Part shown: in pieces, positions 1,122-28,069 of the stretch
Layout: every line of letters starts with the position of its first letter
Numbering within the stretch: the first letter of the stretch is position 1
Source of the DNA: a virus
IMG/VR virus record: IMGVR_UViG_3300020183_000363
Coordinates: 1 to 28,263 of that record
DNA: 28,263 nucleotides
Reading direction: 5' to 3' (one strand)
Position numbers and translations under genes: made by a program
Notes under the pieces: model-generated
The model's input: the letters and a program-made list of their open reading frames with translations, nothing else
Database searches by the model: none
What the model was told of the DNA's origin: nothing

Positions 1122-2150
1122 ATGTCAGTTGTTCTTGTTAAGAATGGGTCGTATCGCGGCATTCCCGTAATTAATACCCAGTTTACTTTAGTTAAGGGTT
1201 TTCAGACAGGCAAGAAGGGTAACTACATTACAGTACGTAATGAGGGTAACTTCCCGATTGCTATTGATGTAGTCAAGATTAAGGTTCAAGATCAGCACGA
1301 CTTTGAGTTTATAGGTGCAAATTTACCTGCAAATGTTAGTCAGTTTATCTCGGCCCCTGTTGTTCAAGAAACTGATGACGAGGCAATGAACCGCATTGCT
1401 ACACGCTTTTCGATTTTGGACGAAATGGCACGTGCTACTACTAATGGCGGCATTCGCGCAATGATCGTTAGTGGTCCCCCAGGTGTTGGTAAAAGTTTTG
1501 GAGTCGAGCAGCAACTTGAAAAGGCAAGTATGTTTGATCGTCTTGCTGGGCGAACACTTAAGTATGAGATTATAAAAGGTGCTATGACAGCACTGGGTCT
1601 CTATGCTACATTGTTCAAGCACAGTGATAAAAATCACGTACTGGTATTTGACGATTGTGACAGTATTCTTATGGACGATCTCTCATTGAATATTCTCAAG
1701 GCTGCGCTTGATAGCGGCAAGCGTCGGCGTATTTACTGGAACAGTGATAGCAGTATGTTACGTCGAGAGGGTATTCCCGACGCATTTGATTTCAATGGAT
1801 CGGTAATCTTTATTTCCAACATAAAGTTTGATCATCTTAAGTCTAAGAAGTTGCAGGATCACTTGGAAGCACTACAGTCGCGCTGTCACTTTTTAGACTT
1901 GACTATTGATACTGAGCGTGACAAGTTATTGCGTATAAAGCAGGTACATCGTGATACTGATGGTGGTCTGTTCCGTGATTATTACTTTGAAACGGACGAA
2001 GGTGATCAGGTCATGAAGTTCATGTGGGACAACAAATCTAAGTTGCGTGAGTTGAGTATGCGTATGGCTCTAAAAATTGCAGATTTGATAAAGATTAGTC
2101 CTACTAACTGGCGTGCGCTTGCTGAGAATACTGTAATGAAGCGGGTCTGA
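1122..2150 (+). CDS. AAA+ family ATPase
   Basis: A 342-residue protein. After a beta-rich N-terminal region (about 1-75) it has an AAA+ core: Walker A GPPGVGKS (118-125), Walker B VLVFDDCD (173-180), a sensor-1-like Asn in VIFISN (about 233) and a likely arginine finger in LQSRC (Arg254). The helical C-terminal part ends in a NWRALAENTVMKRV-type lid. AAA+ proteins couple ATP hydrolysis to remodelling of protein or DNA complexes. Similar stand-alone ATPases occur in many tailed phages, but their target is unknown. The gene has its own promoter and terminator, so it is a monocistronic unit. Its codon use (many CGT, CGC and GGC) looks less AT-biased than the genes that follow. Confidence 0.9.
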   Translation: MSVVLVKNGSYRGIPVINTQFTLVKGFQTGKKGNYITVRNEGNFPIAIDVVKIKVQDQHDFEFIGANLPANVSQFISAPVVQETDDEAMNRIATRFSILDEMARATTNGGIRAMIVSGPPGVGKSFGVEQQLEKASMFDRLAGRTLKYEIIKGAMTALGLYATLFKHSDKNHVLVFDDCDSILMDDLSLNILKAALDSGKRRRIYWNSDSSMLRREGIPDAFDFNGSVIFISNIKFDHLKSKKLQDHLEALQSRCHFLDLTIDTERDKLLRIKQVHRDTDGGLFRDYYFETDEGDQVMKFMWDNKSKLRELSMRMALKIADLIKISPTNWRALAENTVMKRV

Positions 2151-8326: not shown

Positions 8327-8902
8327 ATGATATCAACAGATATTGATATTGATCTGGGAGATAGAGATAAGTTATTGAGTATCATAAAAAATACTCCCGC
8401 TAGCATCATAAAAAATGATGTTTACAAAAAACATCCTACGGGTATATATGTTACAGACATACCATACGATCCACTAAATGAAAGTAGTAGTTTAGACTAT
8501 GAAGAAGCAGAGGCCAGAGGTTATTTCAAATTAGATATATTGAATGTTCATTTATATAATTATGTAAAGAACGAAAATCATTTGCATGACTTAATGCATG
8601 ATCCAGACTGGAATATGCTAAATGATATATCTGTTGTTGAAAAACTTATACACATGGGTAATCACTATAATACGCTTAAAAAGATGCCTGAGCCAGTAAA
8701 TAGCATTCCAAGATTAGCAATGTTTCTTGCAGTAATACGCCCAGGTAAAAAGCATTTAATAGGGTCATCTTGGGAAGAAATAAGTAAATCTATTTGGGAT
8801 AAAGAAGAAGGTACTTATACATTTAAAAAATCACACGCGGTAGCCTATGCTCATCTCGTTGTTGTTAACATGAACTTAATAAAAAATGGTACAATTAATT
8901 AA
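8327..8902 (+). CDS. miniature stand-alone DnaE-like (C-family polymerase) protein
   Basis: A 191-residue protein that condenses the palm and finger signatures of bacterial DNA polymerase III alpha in the right order. DIDIDLGDRDKLL (5-17) matches DnaE PDFDVDF-xxxRDxVI, including two catalytic aspartates. HPTGIYVTDIPYDPL (36-50) matches HAGGVVI...PL. EARGYFKLDILNV (62-74) matches YAGLVKFDFLGL with the third aspartate (D70). LAVIRPGK (134-141) matches LVALFRPGP, and FKKSHAVAYA (166-175) matches FNKSHSAAYA. The PHP, thumb and clamp-binding parts are absent. The motif reading is direct; whether it polymerises, binds primer-template or is a decoy is unknown. It starts one base after dexA and overlaps def by 17 bases. 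Confidence 0.75.
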   Translation: MISTDIDIDLGDRDKLLSIIKNTPASIIKNDVYKKHPTGIYVTDIPYDPLNESSSLDYEEAEARGYFKLDILNVHLYNYVKNENHLHDLMHDPDWNMLNDISVVEKLIHMGNHYNTLKKMPEPVNSIPRLAMFLAVIRPGKKHLIGSSWEEISKSIWDKEEGTYTFKKSHAVAYAHLVVVNMNLIKNGTIN

Positions 8903-9368
8903 AGAAACTGATACTCTGCTTAGGCAAGTTTGTGATCCATACGATTTTGAAGTCGATGGAGATCCTACAGACTTAGTTAAAGAAATGACAAAAATTATGT
9001 TTGAAAATAACGGGATAGGATTAGCAGCTCCACAGGTAGGCGTACTCAAAAGATTGTTCATTATGGGTAATAGTGACAAACTTTTTGTATGCATTAATCC
9101 TAAATTTATTGCAGACGGAGAGTTTTATCGTGATTTAGAAGGATGTTTGAGTTTTCCTAATCTATGGTTGCATGTTAAAAGATTTAAACAAATAGAAGCA
9201 CATTATCAAGACATTAATAGGCAAGTTGTCAAAGCTACTTACGAAGGATTAATTGCTAGAGTGTATCAACACGAATTAGACCATTTAGATGGTGTTTGTT
9301 TTGATACTAGAGTTGGACCAGTAAGTCTAGATTTTGCTAAACAAAAAAGAAAGAAGCAATTAAGATAG
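8886..9368 (+). CDS. def: peptide deformylase
   Basis: A 160-residue enzyme with all three deformylase motifs: GIGLAAPQVG (43-52), EGCLS (85-89, metal-ligand C87) and HELDH (129-133, two metal histidines and the catalytic glutamate). It removes the formyl group from the initiator methionine of new proteins. It lacks the long C-terminal extension of many bacterial enzymes, as is usual for marine phage versions. Phage deformylases are thought to keep processing of phage or host proteins going during infection. The gene starts inside the end of the DnaE-like gene, and its own end overlaps by nine bases a gene on the other strand. Confidence 0.95.
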   Translation: MVQLIKETDTLLRQVCDPYDFEVDGDPTDLVKEMTKIMFENNGIGLAAPQVGVLKRLFIMGNSDKLFVCINPKFIADGEFYRDLEGCLSFPNLWLHVKRFKQIEAHYQDINRQVVKATYEGLIARVYQHELDHLDGVCFDTRVGPVSLDFAKQKRKKQLR

Positions 9369-10670: not shown

Positions 10671-11648
10671 GTGTTTGATATTCTTCAAATAGTTCCAGGC
10701 AAAAAGAAATTAACGCAAAGCGGTTGGCATAGTTTTAACGCTGTGTGCTGCCATTACCGCGGACATAAGGCAGACCGTCGCAGTCGCGGCGGTATTAAAT
10801 TTGACGGAGATAATTGGAGTTATCATTGCTTTAATTGTGATTTTAAGTGTACATTTACGTTAGGAAGAAGCTTTACTAAAAATTTACGTACACTTTTAGA
10901 CTATTGTGGAATAGACAAAGATCAAGTTAATAAGTGGAGCTTTGAAAGTTTACAGCAAAAAGATTTATTATACTATATTAAAATTAAAAAAGAAAAAAAG
11001 AAAATAAAATTTAAAACAACAGTACTACCCGAAGATGCAGAAATAATTACTGATGATGCAACACATAAAATATATTATGAATATTTGAAAAAAAGAAAAA
11101 TGAACATAAATGATTATCCATTTATGTGTACTCCGAACGCTAAAGGACGACAAGCTAATCGGATCATCATACCCTACACTTATGAAAATAAAATAGTGGG
11201 ACACACTAGTAGGTACTTAGATGAACGCACTCCTAAATTCATCAACGACCAACAACAAGGATATGTGTTTGGCATCGACCTACAAAAGATTGATTATGAA
11301 GTCTGTATTGTAGTAGAAGGAATATTTGACGCACTTAGTATAAATGGTTGCGCATTGACGCATAATACAATTAGTTCTGAGCAAGCGGAAATCTTATCAC
11401 AACTTAATAAAAAAATCATTGTTGTACCTGATCAAGACAGCACTGGATTATCCATTTGTGACAAGGCATTAGAATATGGGTTTAATGTAAGTATCCCGAA
11501 TTGGGGAGAAGGTATAAAGGACGTAAATGATGCAGTAATTAAATATGGTAAGGTAGCTACGCTACTAAGTATTTTACAATCTGCAACTAACAGTAAAATT
11601 AAAATAGAAGTACAGAGGAACAAACTTGCTAAAAGACTACAATATTGA
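10671..11648 (+). CDS. DNA primase (gp61-type)
   Basis: A 325-residue DnaG-family primase, close to T4 gp61 (342). The N-terminal zinc-binding region has CCH (26-28), H32 and HCFNC (C53, C56). The TOPRIM core shows VVEGIFDALS (E216, D220) and VVPDQDSTG (D254, D256), followed by GEGIKDVNDAV, which matches the T4 SKDVNDMI segment. The enzyme lays down RNA primers for lagging-strand synthesis and works with the helicase encoded immediately downstream; their reading frames overlap by 23 bases. The start is a GTG with no Shine-Dalgarno site, placed right behind a -10 box. Confidence 0.92.
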   Translation: MFDILQIVPGKKKLTQSGWHSFNAVCCHYRGHKADRRSRGGIKFDGDNWSYHCFNCDFKCTFTLGRSFTKNLRTLLDYCGIDKDQVNKWSFESLQQKDLLYYIKIKKEKKKIKFKTTVLPEDAEIITDDATHKIYYEYLKKRKMNINDYPFMCTPNAKGRQANRIIIPYTYENKIVGHTSRYLDERTPKFINDQQQGYVFGIDLQKIDYEVCIVVEGIFDALSINGCALTHNTISSEQAEILSQLNKKIIVVPDQDSTGLSICDKALEYGFNVSIPNWGEGIKDVNDAVIKYGKVATLLSILQSATNSKIKIEVQRNKLAKRLQY

Positions 11649-13026
11649 TGTTCAAATAGTATTTTTAAGAATGATGGTAACTAACGCTGAGTTATTTACC
11701 CGTGTGCTTAATATTATAAGACCAGAAAATTTTGATAAAAAATTACGACCGGTCGTGTCGTTTTTACTTGATCATAGTAAAAATTATAACGTACTGCCGG
11801 AACCGGTACAAATTAAAGCTACTAGTGGATTAGACATAGATCCTATTGAAGAATTAGATGAGGGACATTATAATTGGTTCCTAGAAGAATTTGAGAGATT
11901 TACACAACGACAAGAACTTGAGAGGGCTATTCTTAAGAGTGCCGATCATCTTGAGAAAGGCGAATATGGTCCTGTAGAGAAACTAATAAAAGATGCTGTC
12001 CAAATTTCTCTACAGCGCGATATGGGTACTGATTATTTTGCTGATCCACGTGCTAGACTTATGCTATTAAAATCTAGCAATGGACAGAACAGCACAGGTT
12101 GGCCATCACTTGATAATAAACTATATGGTGGTTTCAACAGGGGTGAGTTACAAATATTTGCAGGTGGTAGTGGTAGCGGCAAAAGTTTGTTTATGCAGAA
12201 CCTAGCAGTCAACTGGACGCAAGCCGGACTTAATGGTATATACATCACGTTAGAACTTAGTGAAGGTCTATGTAGTATGCGTATCGATGGTATGATGACC
12301 GATACAAGTACCAAAGAAATTTTTAAAGATATTGATAATGTTGAAATGAAAGTCAAGATGATTGCTAAGAAAGCAGGTCAATTGCGTATTAAATATATGC
12401 CTGCACAAAGTACGGTAAATGACATACGTGCTTACTGTAAAGAATTGCAAGTACAGACAGGATTTAGCCTAGATTTCTTATGTGTTGATTACTTAGATTT
12501 GATTATGCCTGTAACAGCTAAAGTAAGCCCAAATGATTTGTTTATTAAAGACAAATATGTATCTGAAGAATTACGTAATCTTGCTAAAGAACTCAATGTA
12601 ATTTTTGTTACTGCAAGTCAGTTAAATCGTAGCGCAGTTGAAGAAATAGAGTTTGATCATAGTCATATCGCAGGTGGCATCAGTAAGATTAATACTGCTG
12701 ACAATGTGTTCGGTATTTTTACAAGTCGCAGTATGAAAGAACAGGGACGTTATCAAATACAGTTGATGAAAACACGTAGTAGTTCAGGAGTAGGTCAGAA
12801 AATTGAGCTTGCATTTGATAAAGACACGCTTAGAATAACCGATGACGGGGAGCAAAATAAGCCTGATAGACCTCAGCCCAGCGCATTGGATATAATGAGC
12901 CAAATTAAAAATACTGCTCAAACGTCCACAGTTCAGGATGGACAACAGGAAGTACGTAAAATAGTTGCAGATACGCAGGGTTCTAAGCTAAATCAGATGC
13001 TTAATCAAATGCGTAATAACCAATAA
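11626..13026 (+). CDS. replicative DNA helicase (gp41/DnaB-type)
   Basis: A 466-residue DnaB-family helicase (T4 gp41 is 475). It has a helical N-terminal domain (1-130), Walker A GGSGSGKS (180-187), Walker B FLCVDYLDL (284-292) and FVTASQLNRS (327-336), which carries the conserved motif III glutamine. The C-terminal tail (about 400-466) is Gln/Asn-rich and polar. It forms a hexamer that unwinds the fork 5'-3' and stimulates the primase. The start is a TTG at 11626 preceded by AGAGGAAC at good spacing; the later ATGs (residues 16-17) would remove the first helix. It overlaps the primase gene. Confidence 0.93.
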   Translation: MLKDYNIDVQIVFLRMMVTNAELFTRVLNIIRPENFDKKLRPVVSFLLDHSKNYNVLPEPVQIKATSGLDIDPIEELDEGHYNWFLEEFERFTQRQELERAILKSADHLEKGEYGPVEKLIKDAVQISLQRDMGTDYFADPRARLMLLKSSNGQNSTGWPSLDNKLYGGFNRGELQIFAGGSGSGKSLFMQNLAVNWTQAGLNGIYITLELSEGLCSMRIDGMMTDTSTKEIFKDIDNVEMKVKMIAKKAGQLRIKYMPAQSTVNDIRAYCKELQVQTGFSLDFLCVDYLDLIMPVTAKVSPNDLFIKDKYVSEELRNLAKELNVIFVTASQLNRSAVEEIEFDHSHIAGGISKINTADNVFGIFTSRSMKEQGRYQIQLMKTRSSSGVGQKIELAFDKDTLRITDDGEQNKPDRPQPSALDIMSQIKNTAQTSTVQDGQQEVRKIVADTQGSKLNQMLNQMRNNQ

Positions 13027-13031
13027 TCCTA

Positions 13032-13039
13032 GATAAATA
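13032..13039 (+). promoter_or_regulatory. late promoter opening the first late block
   Basis: GATAAATA matches seven of eight bases of TATAAATA. The predicted start near 13045 leaves a leader of about 13 bases with AGGA before the ATG at 13058. It lies in the only gap between the helicase gene and the next genes. Confidence 0.6.
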
Positions 13040-13057
13040 TATGATAGGAATATTACA

Positions 13058-13300
13058 ATGCAAAAGCGTACCCGAAGCCTATTAGAGGAACTGGAAGCTA
13101 TTGGTTCTACCCGTGATATAAATCATGTCATTGAAAGCAGAGCTAATAATATCATTACCAGTGCAATCAATTTACTTGAACTTATTAATAAAAAGTTTCC
13201 AAAAGACAGGGCTGAAGTCTTAGAGAAAAAATTACTTAGTTCTATCAAAGGCAGAGATCAGAGACGCTTTTCAAAGTCTTTGAGGACTAAGAATGACTGA
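13058..13300 (+). CDS. small helical late protein
   Basis: This encodes 80 residues, basic and helical, starting MQKRTRSLLEELEAIGSTRDINHVIESR. The central part (ANNIITSAINLLELINKKF) is an amphipathic helix, and the basic end GRDQRRFSKSLRTKND could contact DNA. It is driven by a late-type promoter and overlaps the next late gene by eight bases, so it is likely a virion, assembly or head-related factor. No family is recognised. Confidence 0.7.
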   Translation: MQKRTRSLLEELEAIGSTRDINHVIESRANNIITSAINLLELINKKFPKDRAEVLEKKLLSSIKGRDQRRFSKSLRTKND

Positions 13301-14399
13301 TTACGATAAACTTAATACAGTCTTTGAAAAAATACTAAACGAACAAGAACGCTTCAGTTTAGACCCTAGAGTATTAGGTGCTAGACTTATTGGTAAAAAT
13401 AGAGGTATTGGTGCAGCCGATACTGAAACACGTAATATTTTTGTAAATGAATTTATAAGTCAAGGACTAAATGCCCTGCAATCTGCTATTAGTTCTGGAA
13501 TAATAGGAACTACCGGAGCTGCATCAGCCGAAGATAATCCTGAACCAGTAACATTTGGCGGTATGAAATATACAAAAGGACCAAACGGCTGGATAGATAA
13601 AAGAGGTAAAAAGGCTGATCAAAACACAGCACAAATTTTAGATAAAGTATCAAAACAAGCAGCATCAAGCAAAGCCGTAGATCCATCAATACAAACAAGT
13701 AATTCAATTAGTAACTTTATGATAAATTGGTTTGATACCTATATGCGAGGTAGTAAAATAAATTCAAATATGGCTCCTCAACAAGTTAAAGATGTAGCGG
13801 ATAGAATTCAAAAAGCATATGAAAAAGAAAAAGGTGGTTCATTGTTTAGAAGAGAAGGACAACCTGGAAAAGAAACGCAAACAGAAATGGCTAGATTAGG
13901 ACACCTAGCTTGGAGCTTATACCATACAAGAATGGGCTATCCAAATAATAATAATGCAAATAGAGACGGATCAGGTACCGGCGGAGGCGCACCAGGTACC
14001 GGCGGAGGCGCACCAGGTACCGGCGGTAGACTAGACAGTGAAAAATTTGGAGACAATACTCCCACACTTACTAACTTAAGCAATATCACAAAAGCTGCTG
14101 TGGCGATGCTCAATAAATTTGATCAGGACACTAAGTTTAAAGCTATAAGTGCAATATTAAATGGTACAAATATGGTCGCTAACGTAGATCAAATCGTTAG
14201 TGCTATTGATGCGGACAAAATGAATAGGGCTGATTTGGAGGCTTTAATAAAAGCAGCAGAACGTAAACTAGGAAATCCTGACAACCCCCAAGACGATTTC
14301 TTTGACAAAGTAGCAGTAGGAAGTAATGTAGGTCCTAATGTAGAACCTAATGACCGAAAGAATGTAATAAATTTCCAAAGACCCCCCAAACCTAGATAA
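13293..14399 (+). CDS. late protein with Gly-rich repeat linker, probably structural
   Basis: A 368-residue protein. Residues 1-110 are helical and contain MKYTKGPNGWIDKRGKKA, a short beta motif I associate with phage virion proteins. Next comes a mostly helical segment (145-220). A Gly-rich linker (about 227-245) is encoded by tandem 21-base repeats and followed by RLDSEKF. The C-terminal helical part (260-335) precedes a Pro/Asn-rich tail. Multi-domain, linker-rich, late-transcribed proteins of this kind are often virion or internal head proteins; no enzyme motif is seen. The ATG at 13293 has GAGGA upstream and overlaps the previous gene. Confidence 0.65.
   Translation: MTDYDKLNTVFEKILNEQERFSLDPRVLGARLIGKNRGIGAADTETRNIFVNEFISQGLNALQSAISSGIIGTTGAASAEDNPEPVTFGGMKYTKGPNGWIDKRGKKADQNTAQILDKVSKQAASSKAVDPSIQTSNSISNFMINWFDTYMRGSKINSNMAPQQVKDVADRIQKAYEKEKGGSLFRREGQPGKETQTEMARLGHLAWSLYHTRMGYPNNNNANRDGSGTGGGAPGTGGGAPGTGGRLDSEKFGDNTPTLTNLSNITKAAVAMLNKFDQDTKFKAISAILNGTNMVANVDQIVSAIDADKMNRADLEALIKAAERKLGNPDNPQDDFFDKVAVGSNVGPNVEPNDRKNVINFQRPPKPR
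13974..14026 (+). repeat. tandem 21-base repeat encoding GTGGGAP
   Basis: Two perfect 21-base units (13974-13994 and 13995-14015) and a partial third (14016-14026) encode GTGGGAP-GTGGGAP-GTGG. The repeat is GC-rich in an AT-rich gene, contains GGTACC in each unit, and is prone to slippage, so linker length probably varies between relatives. Confidence 0.9.
14026..14048 (+). repeat. copy 2 of the 23-base exact repeat (encodes RLDSEKF)
   Basis: This is identical to 7513-7535. It directly abuts the end of the tandem linker repeat, as if the linker expanded next to, or was inserted before, the shared peptide. Confidence 0.85.
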
Positions 14400-14404
14400 T
14401 ATGT

Positions 14405-15529
14405 ATGAAGCTAAGAGCTATTTTATTAGAAGCTGCTGCCTTAGGAAGAGAACTTCAACACAGTGAAGATAATCTTATTGTAGGTGGCTCTGAGAAAGCT
14501 ATAGAAACTTTAAATGATTTTAAATCATTAATATCTAATCCGTCTTCTACTAGCCATAAGTGGGACGGAAAAGCTGCAATCTTTTGGGGCCATGATAAAC
14601 AAGGAAACTTCTATCTAGTACCGTTAGCACAATGGAATAAAGGTCTATTACTAGATAAAAAAGGCTTAAGCAGAGAAATACAAAGTACGGGCAAACGAAA
14701 AGAAAATCAAAATGACAATGCATTTAAAGCAGAAAGATTAAAATTATCTCAATCTTATGATAAACTTTGGGATGTGTTTGAAAAAGCCAGTGAAGGCACA
14801 AAGGGTTTTTTTAAGGGCGACATAATGTTTAGTGAACCGCAACGTCCTGATAAAAATGGATATTATAGGTTTACCCCTAATAAAGTTACATATACTGTAA
14901 ATCCTGACGGACTATATGGCAAGATGCTAACAGCACAGGCCTTTGTTACTGTACATGGAAAACCAACTCAGTTAGGAAGTAATGCATTAAACCCAGTAAC
15001 AGATAAAGAAGTTCAATTTATGAATAGAACTCCACAATTAATAGTATTGGGACCACAAACACCTGACGCAAGATTTAAAATAAATACGGATAACATTGAT
15101 AAAGCTATAAACGCTATAAAAACTGATAGTGAAGCTATTGATAGCATTATAAACTACGTAGGTCCTAGATTTACTACAATAAAGAAAGTGCTTTATGACT
15201 ATTCATTAGCAAGCGGAAAACAGAATGGCAACTTAAAATTTGATGATTGGTTTAAAACATCAAATGTAAGTAAGCAACAGCGAGAGCAAATAGATCAATT
15301 ACGTAACACTCCTGCTTGGAAGAAGTTTTGGAAGTCTTATGATATATTACGTAGTATAAAGTTTCAAATATGGCAGCAGTTATTACAAAATGATAAAATG
15401 GGTAAAAGTCTTGGAATAATTTCAAGTATAGGCACTCAGCCCGGGGGAGAAGGTTATGTAACCCCTACTGGAAAAATAATTAATCCTGCATTTAGATCAG
15501 CAGAGCCTAATCCTAGATTTCAGTCATAA
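14405..15529 (+). CDS. KxDG-motif protein resembling covalent nucleotidyltransferases
   Basis: A 374-residue protein. HKWDGKAAIFWG (51-62) resembles motif I (KxDG) of ATP-dependent DNA/RNA ligases and capping enzymes, where the lysine carries AMP or GMP. GFFKGDIMFS (134-143) fits motif III/IIIa, and VTYTVNPDGLYGK (161-173) could hold motif IV. A helical C-terminal region (about 265-350) follows. From memory, a conserved family in marine T4-like phages has this layout, with no proven activity. It is not a complete classical ligase, since a clear motif V (KxK) is not evident. The gene lies among late structural genes, so the target may be protein or packaged nucleic acid. Two late promoters overlap its end. 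Confidence 0.65.
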   Translation: MKLRAILLEAAALGRELQHSEDNLIVGGSEKAIETLNDFKSLISNPSSTSHKWDGKAAIFWGHDKQGNFYLVPLAQWNKGLLLDKKGLSREIQSTGKRKENQNDNAFKAERLKLSQSYDKLWDVFEKASEGTKGFFKGDIMFSEPQRPDKNGYYRFTPNKVTYTVNPDGLYGKMLTAQAFVTVHGKPTQLGSNALNPVTDKEVQFMNRTPQLIVLGPQTPDARFKINTDNIDKAINAIKTDSEAIDSIINYVGPRFTTIKKVLYDYSLASGKQNGNLKFDDWFKTSNVSKQQREQIDQLRNTPAWKKFWKSYDILRSIKFQIWQQLLQNDKMGKSLGIISSIGTQPGGEGYVTPTGKIINPAFRSAEPNPRFQS

Positions 15530-25184: not shown

Positions 25185-25542
25185 ATTTCCTGTAATTGAA
25201 CTTGTAGATCGTTATTGTATTGCCAAATTAAAATACAATAAAATAGGAACTAATAAAGAAGAATTAGATTTTTATTTAGATCAAATTAAAGAATTACCTT
25301 TAGACTTGATAGCTATCCAACTTGAAAGACTGTATGAGGTCCATAGGCAAGTTTGGGAAGTTGAAGATGAATTTAAGAAAAAGAAAGTTGATACAAAATA
25401 CGAATTAGAAGAAATAGGTCGTAGAGCCTTATATGTTAGGGATATAATGGAAGAACGTTATCATCTTAAAAATGAAATGGCTGCAATACTTAATGACCCA
25501 GTAAAAGAAAGAAAAGATTATGGTGGAGCATTTAAGTTATAG
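25177..25542 (+). CDS. small helical protein of sugar-cluster type
   Basis: This encodes 121 residues, all-helical and highly charged (LVDRYCIAKLKYNKIGTNKE, then LERLYEVHRQVWEVEDEFKK and ALYVRDIMEERYHLKNEMA). The pattern of a leading DR-x-(T/I)-xxLK helix, VHRQ-WxxED and a final N/E-x-R helix resembles small uncharacterised proteins that accompany polysaccharide gene clusters in bacteria (of the DUF6165 type). I cannot confirm the match. It overlaps the upstream gene by eight bases and, in its last 25 bases, the end of the opposing glycosyltransferase-like gene. Confidence 0.7.
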   Translation: MYKFPVIELVDRYCIAKLKYNKIGTNKEELDFYLDQIKELPLDLIAIQLERLYEVHRQVWEVEDEFKKKKVDTKYELEEIGRRALYVRDIMEERYHLKNEMAAILNDPVKERKDYGGAFKL

Positions 25543-26828
25543 GGCAAATCAAATACAAACTGCTCTCTTTTTTTAAGATTTTCAAAATTATGATCACAAA
25601 TGCCTTTGGCAAAGTGTAGAAAGTTTTTTAATTCAACTTGATTTAAATTACAAAGTCTTTCAGCTTCATTTACTATTTTAAAAAGTCTAGTAGCATCATC
25701 CTCTTCATTATCATAACTTTCATCTATATATGGACTAAAAGTTTTGTAACCTAACGAGTGTAAAATTTTTAAAAAATGTTTAGGGGCTGTTACCAAAAAC
25801 GGATGTTTATATAAAAAACACCTAAATATTTTTTCACTAAATAAACGTCCAACTATATCATAAAATTCATTTTCATTATATGGAAATGCTTTTTCATATA
25901 TGAACGGAAAGTTTGTCTCTGTTACTAAGCTAAAGTACGTATCGTTGAACCAAATATTATGTTCTGGTAGTATTTGCGCGAGACACTTTTCACTTTGATT
26001 ATATGTAGTATCTAATAAAATATTATCAATTTTACTTAAAACTGTATAATTGTCTTGTAAGATTTTAATAATCTCTTCGTTTTTATTAAACCTTATTAAT
26101 AATTCACGTAAAACTGAAGCTCCGTCACTTGGTCCACCACTATCTTTAATATTATAACTTACGTATCCATCTTTTAATAAGTTTTTAGCTGCAAGTAAAA
26201 ATACAATAGCTGCTCTGTGTTGACGAAAAAAGCCATTTAAACACAAATACTTTTTATTATAAGATTTTAATTGAAAATCAAATTGTTGTATTTGGACAAA
26301 TTCTTTATGAGCTCCGTCCAAATAGTTTCTAAGATGAGTTGACTGATATTTAGCTCCTAATTCAAATTCTAAAGTAACTCTTGTTTTTATAGCTGGCAAA
26401 TTCAATTTTTTACTATACCAATCTACAGCTTTGTGTATGTCAAAACTTTCACTACTTAAGTAAATGTTTTTTGCAGGTACTCTATCCCTACCGATTAAAT
26501 TTACATATATGCTTTCAATAATTTGATGGTAACCATGCCCTGACATATGAAGGGCTAACTTGACATCGCCATTTCTTATTGGTTCTATCCATTTATCTTC
26601 AACAAACTCTTCTAAGGTAACCTGATCAAATGTTTCATGCCCTAAAAATTCAACGTAGTATAGTTTTTCATCGTTTATATCTAGATAATCACATAAGTTA
26701 GGCACATTTAATATTCCAATAGGATTTTTGGGTACATGATAATATTTTATTCCTATCTTTTTAAATCCGGGATACGTATGTATGTAATTAAATTTTTTAA
26801 TTTCTTGATTAAAAAGGTTAACGATCAT
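25518..26828 (-). CDS. glycosyltransferase-like protein, paralogue 1
   Basis: A 436-residue protein with no signal peptide. Conserved blocks shared with the next gene are SGHGYHQIIESIY, IYLSSESFD, KKYLCLNGFFRQHRAA (about 201-216), ILPEHNIWFNDTYFSLVTET and, near the end, SEKIFRCFLYKHPFLV, LGYKTF and IDESYDNE-DDATRL. The SEK-fR-----HPFl, LGYKTF and DESYD blocks resemble the C-terminal, nucleotide-binding half of fucosyltransferase- or exostosin-like proteins of marine phages and bacteria, where glutamate/lysine of SEK would contact the donor. The function is inferred, and the donor and acceptor are unknown. It starts in an ATGA overlap with the upstream paralogue, so the two form one minus-strand operon. 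Confidence 0.7.
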   Translation of the reverse strand: MIVNLFNQEIKKFNYIHTYPGFKKIGIKYYHVPKNPIGILNVPNLCDYLDINDEKLYYVEFLGHETFDQVTLEEFVEDKWIEPIRNGDVKLALHMSGHGYHQIIESIYVNLIGRDRVPAKNIYLSSESFDIHKAVDWYSKKLNLPAIKTRVTLEFELGAKYQSTHLRNYLDGAHKEFVQIQQFDFQLKSYNKKYLCLNGFFRQHRAAIVFLLAAKNLLKDGYVSYNIKDSGGPSDGASVLRELLIRFNKNEEIIKILQDNYTVLSKIDNILLDTTYNQSEKCLAQILPEHNIWFNDTYFSLVTETNFPFIYEKAFPYNENEFYDIVGRLFSEKIFRCFLYKHPFLVTAPKHFLKILHSLGYKTFSPYIDESYDNEEDDATRLFKIVNEAERLCNLNQVELKNFLHFAKGICDHNFENLKKREQFVFDLPYNLNAPP

Positions 26829-28069
26829 ATTTTTAATTCTCTACAAAAAAATTGATGTTTGGTCTTTAACATTTCAAAATTATGTTCACAAATATATTTT
26901 GCTTGATTTATAAAGTTGTAAACTTCTTCATCACTTAAATTACAAAGTCTTTCAATTTCTTTTGCTATTTTATAAATTCTAATACTATTATCAGTTTCAT
27001 CATCATAACTTTCATCTATCAAGCTATCAAAAGTTTTGTATCCTAATTCCTTTAATAATTTTAAACTATGTGGGTTGCACACAATTAAAAAAGGATGTTT
27101 AAAATAAATGGTTCTAAAAATTTTTTCACTAAGAAGTCGTCCTACTCTGTTAGGTAGTTCTGGTGTATGATGAATTGGGTTAAAGTCAGGGTAGTTTGTT
27201 TCAGTAACTACGCTAAAAAAGGTATCATTAAAATATGTATCATGTTCAGGCATAACAACTGCTAGGTTTTCTCCGTGGTTAAATGGTCTATCCAATAAAA
27301 TTGATTTAAGTTTTAGTAAATTATCTTTATTATTATCTAAAATACTGTTTACTTCAGGTATTTGACTAAAAAATTCTTTCATAAAATTATATGTGTCTTC
27401 AGGCTCAGCACCGCCTTCTTTAATATTAAAACTAATCAAACCTTTATCCAACAAGTTTAATCCTGATAACATAGTTATAAGTGCTGCTCTATGTCGTCTA
27501 TAATATCCATTTAAACATAAAAACTTTTTGTCATAATGCTTCAATTCAAAATTGTTAAATTTAACCGCTAGATTTTTAGCATAATGACTGTAGTAACCTT
27601 CAAATTCTGTTGTAAGATAATAGTTAACCATAGGAAGATTTAATTTTTTGCTTATAAAATATCCAGCGGTGTGCATGTCTGCACTTTCACTCGATATTAT
27701 TATATTATCAAATGGCAAATTAAATTTCAGTATAACTTCTTGGTATATATTTTCTATAGCTTCATGTTGTCCATGACCTGTATTGTGCAGAACTAAATTA
27801 CATTCATTTCGTTTTATTTTATCTAAAACATACTTAGGTATGAAATCACTTAAATTATAAGTAGTAAAACAGTACGGTCCAAAAAATTCTATGTACCATG
27901 CATCATTATTTGCTAAATTGCTTTGCATATTACTATTAGATAAAGTATATTCAAAATAGTCAGTAAAATTCCATGGAAATTCAGGCTTATAACTTTTTTC
28001 CCTTACAAACGATGTTGGACTTTGTCCCATGTCCCATAATGTATAATAGTAGCTTTTATTTAAAATCAT
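26825..28069 (-). CDS. glycosyltransferase-like protein, paralogue 2
   Basis: A 414-residue protein, clearly paralogous to its downstream neighbour over the full length. TGHGQHEAIENIY, IIISSESADMH, KKFLCLNGYYRRHRAA, VMPEHDTYFNDTFFSVVTET, SEKIFRTIYFKHPFLI, LGYKTF, IDESYDDE and ERLCNL align in order. The N-terminal 60 residues diverge most. The pair probably arose by tandem duplication and may now act on different acceptors or linkages. It is first in the minus-strand operon, with a late-type element four bases before its start and no Shine-Dalgarno site. Confidence 0.7.
   Translation of the reverse strand: MILNKSYYYTLWDMGQSPTSFVREKSYKPEFPWNFTDYFEYTLSNSNMQSNLANNDAWYIEFFGPYCFTTYNLSDFIPKYVLDKIKRNECNLVLHNTGHGQHEAIENIYQEVILKFNLPFDNIIISSESADMHTAGYFISKKLNLPMVNYYLTTEFEGYYSHYAKNLAVKFNNFELKHYDKKFLCLNGYYRRHRAALITMLSGLNLLDKGLISFNIKEGGAEPEDTYNFMKEFFSQIPEVNSILDNNKDNLLKLKSILLDRPFNHGENLAVVMPEHDTYFNDTFFSVVTETNYPDFNPIHHTPELPNRVGRLLSEKIFRTIYFKHPFLIVCNPHSLKLLKELGYKTFDSLIDESYDDETDNSIRIYKIAKEIERLCNLSDEEVYNFINQAKYICEHNFEMLKTKHQFFCRELKI

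What the first reader, a model, noticed from the sequence alone, without database searches (positions are those of the whole stretch)
14405..15529. KxDG nucleotidyltransferase-like protein in the late gene block
Seen: HKWDGKAAIFWG (51-62), GFFKGDIMFS (134-143) and VTYTVNPDGLYGK (161-173) resemble motifs I, III and IV of DNA/RNA ligases and capping enzymes, with plausible spacing. No clear motif V is seen. Known: the lysine of KxDG forms the covalent nucleotide intermediate. Inference: an unassigned phage family that may adenylate or ligate RNA, DNA or protein, perhaps in the virion since it is late-transcribed next to structural genes.
Basis: partly seen in the sequence, partly recalled or inferred. 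Interest (0 to 1): 0.62.

Follow-up and report, generated by a model that had tools for sequence, protein, structure and literature searches.

The report
Ligase-like enzyme family in marine phages
A protein of unknown function that hundreds of ocean T4-like phages carry (Pfam DUF6267) keeps, without exception, the catalytic residues of enzymes that seal broken nucleic acids, and in related phages its gene sits beside or is fused to other nucleotide-transferring enzymes, so it is probably a new kind of ligase-like enzyme; this still has to be shown at the bench.

Summary
The ORF and the KWDG motif are real. The protein belongs to Pfam DUF6267, a family of unknown function found in 460 phage records, nearly all T4-like cyanophages. 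In 173 homologues (down to ~18% identity) K52, D54, G55, E349 and G350 never vary. A ~120-residue helical insert lies between IIIa and IV, and no OB domain follows. AlphaFold models are confident (pLDDT 91, 89). Foldseek finds no significant PDB match, yet RNA ligases rank first and third in two searches. Blind profile alignments place motif on motif against three ligase families. In the sister clade a Pol-beta-type nucleotidyltransferase gene overlaps DUF6267 or is fused to it; in cyanophages the partner is a HIGH-type 'cytidyltransferase', reported in S-SM1 virions. Phages with DUF6267 mostly lack recognisable ligases, but two have both. Best reading: a divergent covalent nucleotidyltransferase (~75%), more likely an RNA-end ligase/repair enzyme than the missing DNA ligase. 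Activity is untested.

The parts
14405..15529 (+). DUF6267 protein, 374 aa, proposed covalent nucleotidyltransferase
   Evidence: ORF; PF19782 E 1e-16; model pLDDT 91
14459..14470 (+). HSED (res. 19-22), family signature HxED; E21 172/173
14558..14569 (+). motif I, K52-W-D-G55, proposed nucleotide-accepting lysine
   Evidence: K, D, G 173/173; profile alignment to ATP-DNA ligases lands on their K-x-D-G
14804..14833 (+). motif III-like GFFKGDIMFS (res. 134-143)
   Evidence: G138 170/173, D139 172/173; beta strand in model
   Evidence: P158 and Y163 173/173
15050..15409 (+). helical insert (about res. 216-335) between IIIa and IV
   Evidence: helices 229-335 in the model; shortened in S-CAM7, S-SM1 and S-SSM7 homologues
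15449..15460 (+). motif IV, E349-G-Y-V352
   Evidence: E and G 173/173; profile alignment to Rnl1 and to small Rnl2-like ligases lands here in register
15473..15475 (+). motif V lysine K357
   Evidence: invariant in A2; pattern in 173/173
13033..13039 (+). late-promoter-like ATAAATA, 18 nt before ORF 13058, heading the cluster that contains DUF6267
   Evidence: 5 of 8 plus-strand copies lie within 70 nt upstream of ORFs, binomial p 1e-4; cyanophage late consensus NATAAATA (PMC2984593)
13058..13300 (+). 80 aa, phrog_11854 'virion structural protein'
   Evidence: E 3e-18
13293..14399 (+). 368 aa upstream neighbour, fast-evolving, no assigned family
11626..13026 (+). DnaB-like replicative helicase; relative found near DUF6267 in 96 loci
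   Evidence: PF03796 E 2.5e-21

Best explanation
DUF6267 is a very divergent covalent nucleotidyltransferase of the DNA/RNA ligase and capping-enzyme superfamily. K52 is expected to attack the alpha phosphate of ATP (or NAD+ or GTP) and form a lysyl-NMP. D139, F156/Y163, E349 and K357 would bind the nucleotide and metal. The NMP would then be passed to a nucleic-acid 5' phosphate, so that an end is sealed. The missing OB domain, the best match to Rnl1-type motif IV-V and the Pol-beta nucleotidyltransferase partner in the sister clade make RNA ends (for example tRNAs cut by host nucleases) the likeliest substrate. The helical insert between IIIa and IV would take the place of the extra domains that other ligases carry at their termini. 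Shown here: family, invariance, motif order, gene partners, absence of other recognisable ligases in most carriers. Inferred: chemistry, nucleotide, substrate.
For: Catalytic-type residues invariant in 173/173. Motif order I-III-IIIa-IV-V lies on beta strands of a pLDDT 91 model in the canonical sequence. First of 350,542 PDB chains is an archaeal ATP-dependent RNA ligase; the second family member's model brings T. brucei RNA editing ligase 1 at rank 3 and bacterial NAD+ ligase domains at 11 and 45. First non-family viral hits are a DNA ligase (prob 0.51) and RNA ligases. hhalign against Rnl1: score 25.1 at motif IV-V, not reached by any of 23 control families (max 23.0). Against ATP-DNA ligases the best local alignment is KWDG on KYDG, against small Rnl2-like ligases EGYV..KLV on EGLV..KLV. 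Pol-beta-type gene overlapping by 1 or 4 nt in 13 loci, directly adjacent in L020 and L036, and fused in four loci of two lineages. HIGH-type cytidyltransferase fused or adjacent in the other clade.
Against: No significant sequence or fold match to any solved nucleotidyltransferase: Foldseek E 0.69 and 0.48 with low TM-scores; hmmsearch against PDB finds no ligase even with the insert removed. hhalign P-values are only 0.02-0.07 one by one, and against T4 gp30 the score is no better than for the reversed profile. The Pol-beta partner is absent from the window and from its ~50%-identical relatives as far as their contigs reach. Motif III has D in place of the usual E.
Confidence: 0.55

Rival explanations
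1. DUF6267 is the missing replicative DNA ligase of marine T4-like phages: it seals Okazaki fragments in place of T4 gp30.
For: A review notes that no g30 homologue is found in cyanomyoviruses and leaves open a distant unidentified one (PMC2984593). Of 12 DUF6267-bearing phage records searched, none has NAD-ligase, Rnl1 or Rnl2, and 11 lack ATP-ligase; T4 and KVP40 show the reverse. The gene lies beside gp41, gp43, uvsX and gp61.
Against: S-CRM01 and the 55-kb contig of L031 carry both a PF01068 ligase and DUF6267. There is no OB domain after motif V. The comparison is confounded by phylogeny: the carriers compared belong to one lineage. Host ligase can replace gp30, as the same review says.
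Confidence: 0.18
2. DUF6267 is a virion-associated nucleotidyltransferase that modifies a protein or helps assembly, like T4 gp63, which is both RNA ligase 1 and tail-fibre attachment catalyst.
For: Late-promoter-like motif and virion-type neighbour upstream. The fused or adjacent partner T4-GC190 was detected in S-SM1 virions. T4 rnlA is annotated with both roles.
Against: No virion mass-spectrometry report of T4-GC71 itself was found in the text held. The gene also sits next to replication genes. Invariance of all catalytic-type residues argues for chemistry, not only for structure.
Confidence: 0.1
3. DUF6267 is not a nucleotidyltransferase: KxDG and EGxV are conserved for another reason in a phage-specific fold.
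For: No significant fold or sequence match to any known superfamily. A loose pattern of this kind arises by chance in about 0.8% of sequences.
Against: Six of the 13 invariant columns are exactly the catalytic positions of motifs I, IV and V. Unsupervised alignments land motif on motif in three ligase families. Ligases recur near the top of two separate fold searches.
Confidence: 0.17

Closest known systems
Pfam PF19782, DUF6267 (T4-GC 71 of cyanophages; first half of phrog_455)
   Same: Same family by curated cut-off; full set of invariant residues.
   Different: The window's branch is about 20% identical to the cyanophage branch, has no fused cytidyltransferase, and keeps a longer segment between motifs Ia and III.
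T4 RNA ligase 1 (RnlA, gp63; PF09511)
   Same: Motif IV-V EGYV...K aligns in register and is the best profile match; no OB domain; phage enzyme with a second, structural role.
   Different: No PF09511 match; large helical insert between IIIa and IV; no C-terminal domain after motif V.
Rnl2 / RNA editing ligases / archaeal RNA ligase (PF09414; 1xdn, 5d1o)
   Same: Highest-ranked enzymes in the fold searches; GD/GE-type motif III.
   Different: No significant E-value; no PF09414 match.
ATP-dependent DNA ligase (T4 gp30, PF01068)
   Same: KxDG motif I; gene beside replication genes; mostly complementary distribution.
   Different: No OB domain, no PF01068 match, and coexistence in two records.
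RNA-repair operons with RlaP (Pol-beta nucleotidyltransferase plus RNA ligase; described in PMC7824862)
   Same: Sister-clade DUF6267 genes overlap or are fused with a Pol-beta-type gene (GS..SGDLD..QVDIM).
   Different: That Pol-beta family matches no Pfam or PHROG family, so it is not shown to be RlaP; it is not present in the window.

Membership tests
Pfam DUF6267 | Score above the curated cut-off | tested here: met
   61.7 bits against 27
Covalent nucleotidyltransferase superfamily | Invariant motif I KxDG | tested here: met
   173/173
Covalent nucleotidyltransferase superfamily | Motifs III, IIIa, IV, V in order | tested here: met
   G-D at 138-139, F156/P158/Y163, E349-G350, K357, all near-invariant; assignment by resemblance and profile alignment
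Covalent nucleotidyltransferase superfamily | Nucleotidyltransferase fold | tested here: inconclusive
   Ligases at rank 1 and at ranks 3 and 11 but with E 0.69, 0.48 and 1.5
Covalent nucleotidyltransferase superfamily | Lysyl-NMP intermediate | not testable with these tools
   needs purified protein
ATP-dependent DNA ligase | OB-fold domain after motif V | tested here: not met
   17 residues follow K357; no OB-type strands in the model
ATP-dependent DNA ligase | PF01068 match | tested here: not met
   not among the listed families matched by 43 members at E up to 1; no PF01068 match in the window record
T4 Rnl1 / Rnl2 families | PF09511 or PF09414 match | tested here: not met
   twelve carrier records have no match anywhere
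RNA-repair operon with Pol-beta partner | Pol-beta nucleotidyltransferase adjacent or fused | tested here: not met
   met in the sister clade (13 overlapping loci, two adjacent, four fused) but not in the window record, which is a 28-kb fragment
T4 gp63-type virion role | Presence in virions or effect on assembly | not testable with these tools
   only the neighbour T4-GC190 is reported in virions

The most novel reading that the evidence does not exclude
DUF6267 founds a new branch of the ligase superfamily in which a helical domain is inserted inside the catalytic domain and no OB or C-terminal domain is needed. It works in a two- or three-enzyme end-repair module with a Pol-beta or a HIGH-type nucleotidyltransferase, and may be carried in the virion to repair nucleic acids from the first minutes of infection. 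It is a core gene of the ocean's T4-like phages, which were thought to have no ligase of their own.
Probability: 0.35. Interest if true: 0.82.

Novelty: new variant of a known kind. Interest (0 to 1): 0.6.

Why it matters
Cyanophages and other marine T4-like phages are among the most abundant viruses in the sea. DUF6267 is found in hundreds of their genomes, annotated 'hypothetical'. A catalytic hypothesis with named residues turns it into a simple labelling experiment, bears on the open question of how these phages do without gp30, and would add a ligase architecture with an internal helical domain.

Tried and rejected
phmmer and hmmsearch against PDB with the single sequence, the family profile and an insert-deleted profile: no ligase, only coiled-coil or chance hits. 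Papers mentioning DUF6267: none. Pfam, PHROGs, NCBIfam and PADLOC for the Pol-beta-like partner: nothing; PDB hmmsearch gives terminal uridylyltransferase Tailor at E 0.23, aligned on GS..DLDLFVD, while the better-scoring CFA/I fimbrial hits are an artefact of a repeated chain. Cellular origin: the genome-contig hits are nearly all metagenome-assembled contigs of many unrelated phyla at 22-34% identity, most likely co-binned phage. Strict one-for-one replacement of gp30: weakened by S-CRM01 and L031, which have both.

Full report
What is there. It is a member of Pfam DUF6267 (PF19782; 61.7 bits, cut-off 27). DUF6267 has no assigned function, and no paper in the library mentions it. tblastn with a Methylophilales-phage homologue finds 460 phage records, 446 of them named Synechococcus, Prochlorococcus or cyanophage, with the hits shown annotated as hypothetical. 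In cyanophages it is T4-GC 71.

Conservation. From IMG/VR scans and phage records I assembled 173 full-length homologues. K52, D54, G55, G62, F69, P158, Y163, E349 and G350 are identical in all 173; E21, D139 and H184 in 172. A lysine in the pattern EG[YF]x...K[hydrophobic][VI] follows in all 173. In the 43-sequence alignment (17-54% identity to the window protein) 13 columns are invariant, and six of them are K52, D54, G55, E349, G350 and K357. This is the residue set of motifs I, IV and V of covalent nucleotidyltransferases (general knowledge of ligases). One sequence with such a loose pattern would mean little (0.8% of shuffles); its invariance is what counts.

Fold. AlphaFold2 gives pLDDT 91.0 and pTM 0.86 for the window protein and 89.3 and 0.86 for a Methylophilales-phage-type member. 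Strands carry the motifs in the order known from ligases. A helical block (229-335) is inserted between IIIa and IV; only 17 residues follow K357, so there is no OB domain. Foldseek against PDB has no significant match, which I count as inconclusive. The first chain of 350,542 is an archaeal ATP-dependent RNA ligase, and the second model brings RNA editing ligase 1 at rank 3, an NAD+ ligase adenylation domain at rank 11 and another bacterial DNA ligase at 45, many of the rest being helix bundles that match the insert. The viral library gives the family first, then a DNA ligase (prob 0.51) and RNA ligases. Ligases are a small part of the PDB (3 and 14 distinct sequences related to T4 Rnl2 and gp30), so their recurrence is suggestive. 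The coordinates could not be trimmed and searched again without the insert.

Profile comparison. hhalign of DUF6267 against T4 Rnl1 homologues scores 25.1, with EGYV..K aligned on EGYV..K; none of 23 unrelated families from the same loci reaches this (best 23.0). Against a cluster of 47 proteins, mostly ATP-DNA ligases, the best local alignment is KWDG on KYDG; against small Rnl2-like ligases it is EGYV..KLV on EGLV..KLV. With the full profile, reversed controls score lower in five of six comparisons; against T4 gp30 there is no difference. P-values are weak (0.02-0.07), but so are those between Rnl1 and DNA ligases.

Partners. The family has two well-supported halves. In the half that includes the window, DUF6267 of relatives between L020 and L036 is preceded by a 246-283-residue protein with the signature of Pol-beta nucleotidyltransferases (PIGSGATPTPGKxSGDLDMIVD...QVDIMV; S67, G68, D69, D71, D138 invariant in 12). 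The two genes overlap by 4 or 1 nt in 13 loci, lie 8 nt apart in L020, and are fused in L011, L012, L019 (one lineage) and L037. L021 and L022 in the same clade lack it next door. L011, 41% identical to the window protein, is sister to the window's own clade. The window and its ~50% relatives lack this partner as far as their fragments reach. In the cyanophage half the downstream or fused partner is a HIGH-type cytidyltransferase (phrog_455 spans both); L039 has the same fusion in the other half. Pol-beta plus RNA ligase is the RlaP pairing of RNA repair (PMC7824862); whether this Pol-beta family is RlaP is not shown.

Distribution of other ligases. Twelve DUF6267-bearing phage records (one of them a 35-kb fragment) have no NAD-ligase, Rnl1 or Rnl2, and only S-CRM01 has an ATP-ligase; T4 and KVP40 have ATP-ligase, Rnl1 and Rnl2 but no DUF6267. 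A 2010 review states that g30 homologues are not found in cyanomyoviruses and that distant ones may exist (PMC2984593). One further contig (L031) has an ATP-ligase as well. So DUF6267 is not simply exchanged for gp30, and the carriers compared belong to one phage lineage.

Late expression and virion. ATAAATA, the core of the late promoter of cyanophages, occurs 18 nt before ORF 13058, which heads the run 13058, 13293, 14405; five of eight plus-strand copies in the window lie within 70 nt upstream of ORFs. ORF 13058 matches a PHROG named virion structural protein. T4-GC190, the partner cytidyltransferase, was found in S-SM1 virions (PMC3037559, section on experimentally identified structural proteins). 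Virion presence of DUF6267 itself is not shown.

Conclusion. That DUF6267 is a covalent nucleotidyltransferase I hold at about 75-80%; that it joins or repairs RNA ends is the best single account at about 55%; DNA ligase, virion modifier and no nucleotidyltransferase at all remain. It is a new variant of a known kind, with the fold and the chemistry still to be proved.

Noticed in passing
L024:3824-4675, L023:4192-4992, L029:1371-2210, L011:3155-3960: An apparently undescribed Pol-beta-type nucleotidyltransferase family, matching no Pfam, PHROG, NCBIfam or PADLOC model, translationally coupled or fused to DUF6267.
   Followed up: partly
window 13033, 15526, 15565, 16967, 19946, 22588 (+): ATAAATA late-promoter-like sites stand just before ORFs while the motif is rarer in the window than in shuffles (11 against 24 expected).
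   Followed up: partly
L013:10583-12535, L014:10203-10772, L039:2139-3035, S-PM2 A0A0M6VVW4: HIGH-type cytidyltransferase domain adjacent or fused to DUF6267, in Melnitz together with DUF5824; its substrate is unknown (a weak nicotinamide-nucleotide adenylyltransferase match).
   Followed up: partly
S-CRM01 NC_015569.1:142801-143331; contig of L031 (G288:C1:652-1212): ATP-dependent DNA ligase genes in two DUF6267 carriers, exceptions to the usual absence of ligases.
   Followed up: no
window 25518-26828 and 26825-28069 (-): Two adjacent minus-strand genes of 436 and 414 aa that look like tandem paralogues, by eye.
   Followed up: no
window 8886-9368: Peptide deformylase by motif (GIGLAAPQVG, EGCLSFP, HELDH), read by eye.
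   Followed up: no
window 1122-2150: AAA ATPase matching phrog_1250 over its whole length (E 6e-84), family of unknown function.
   Followed up: no
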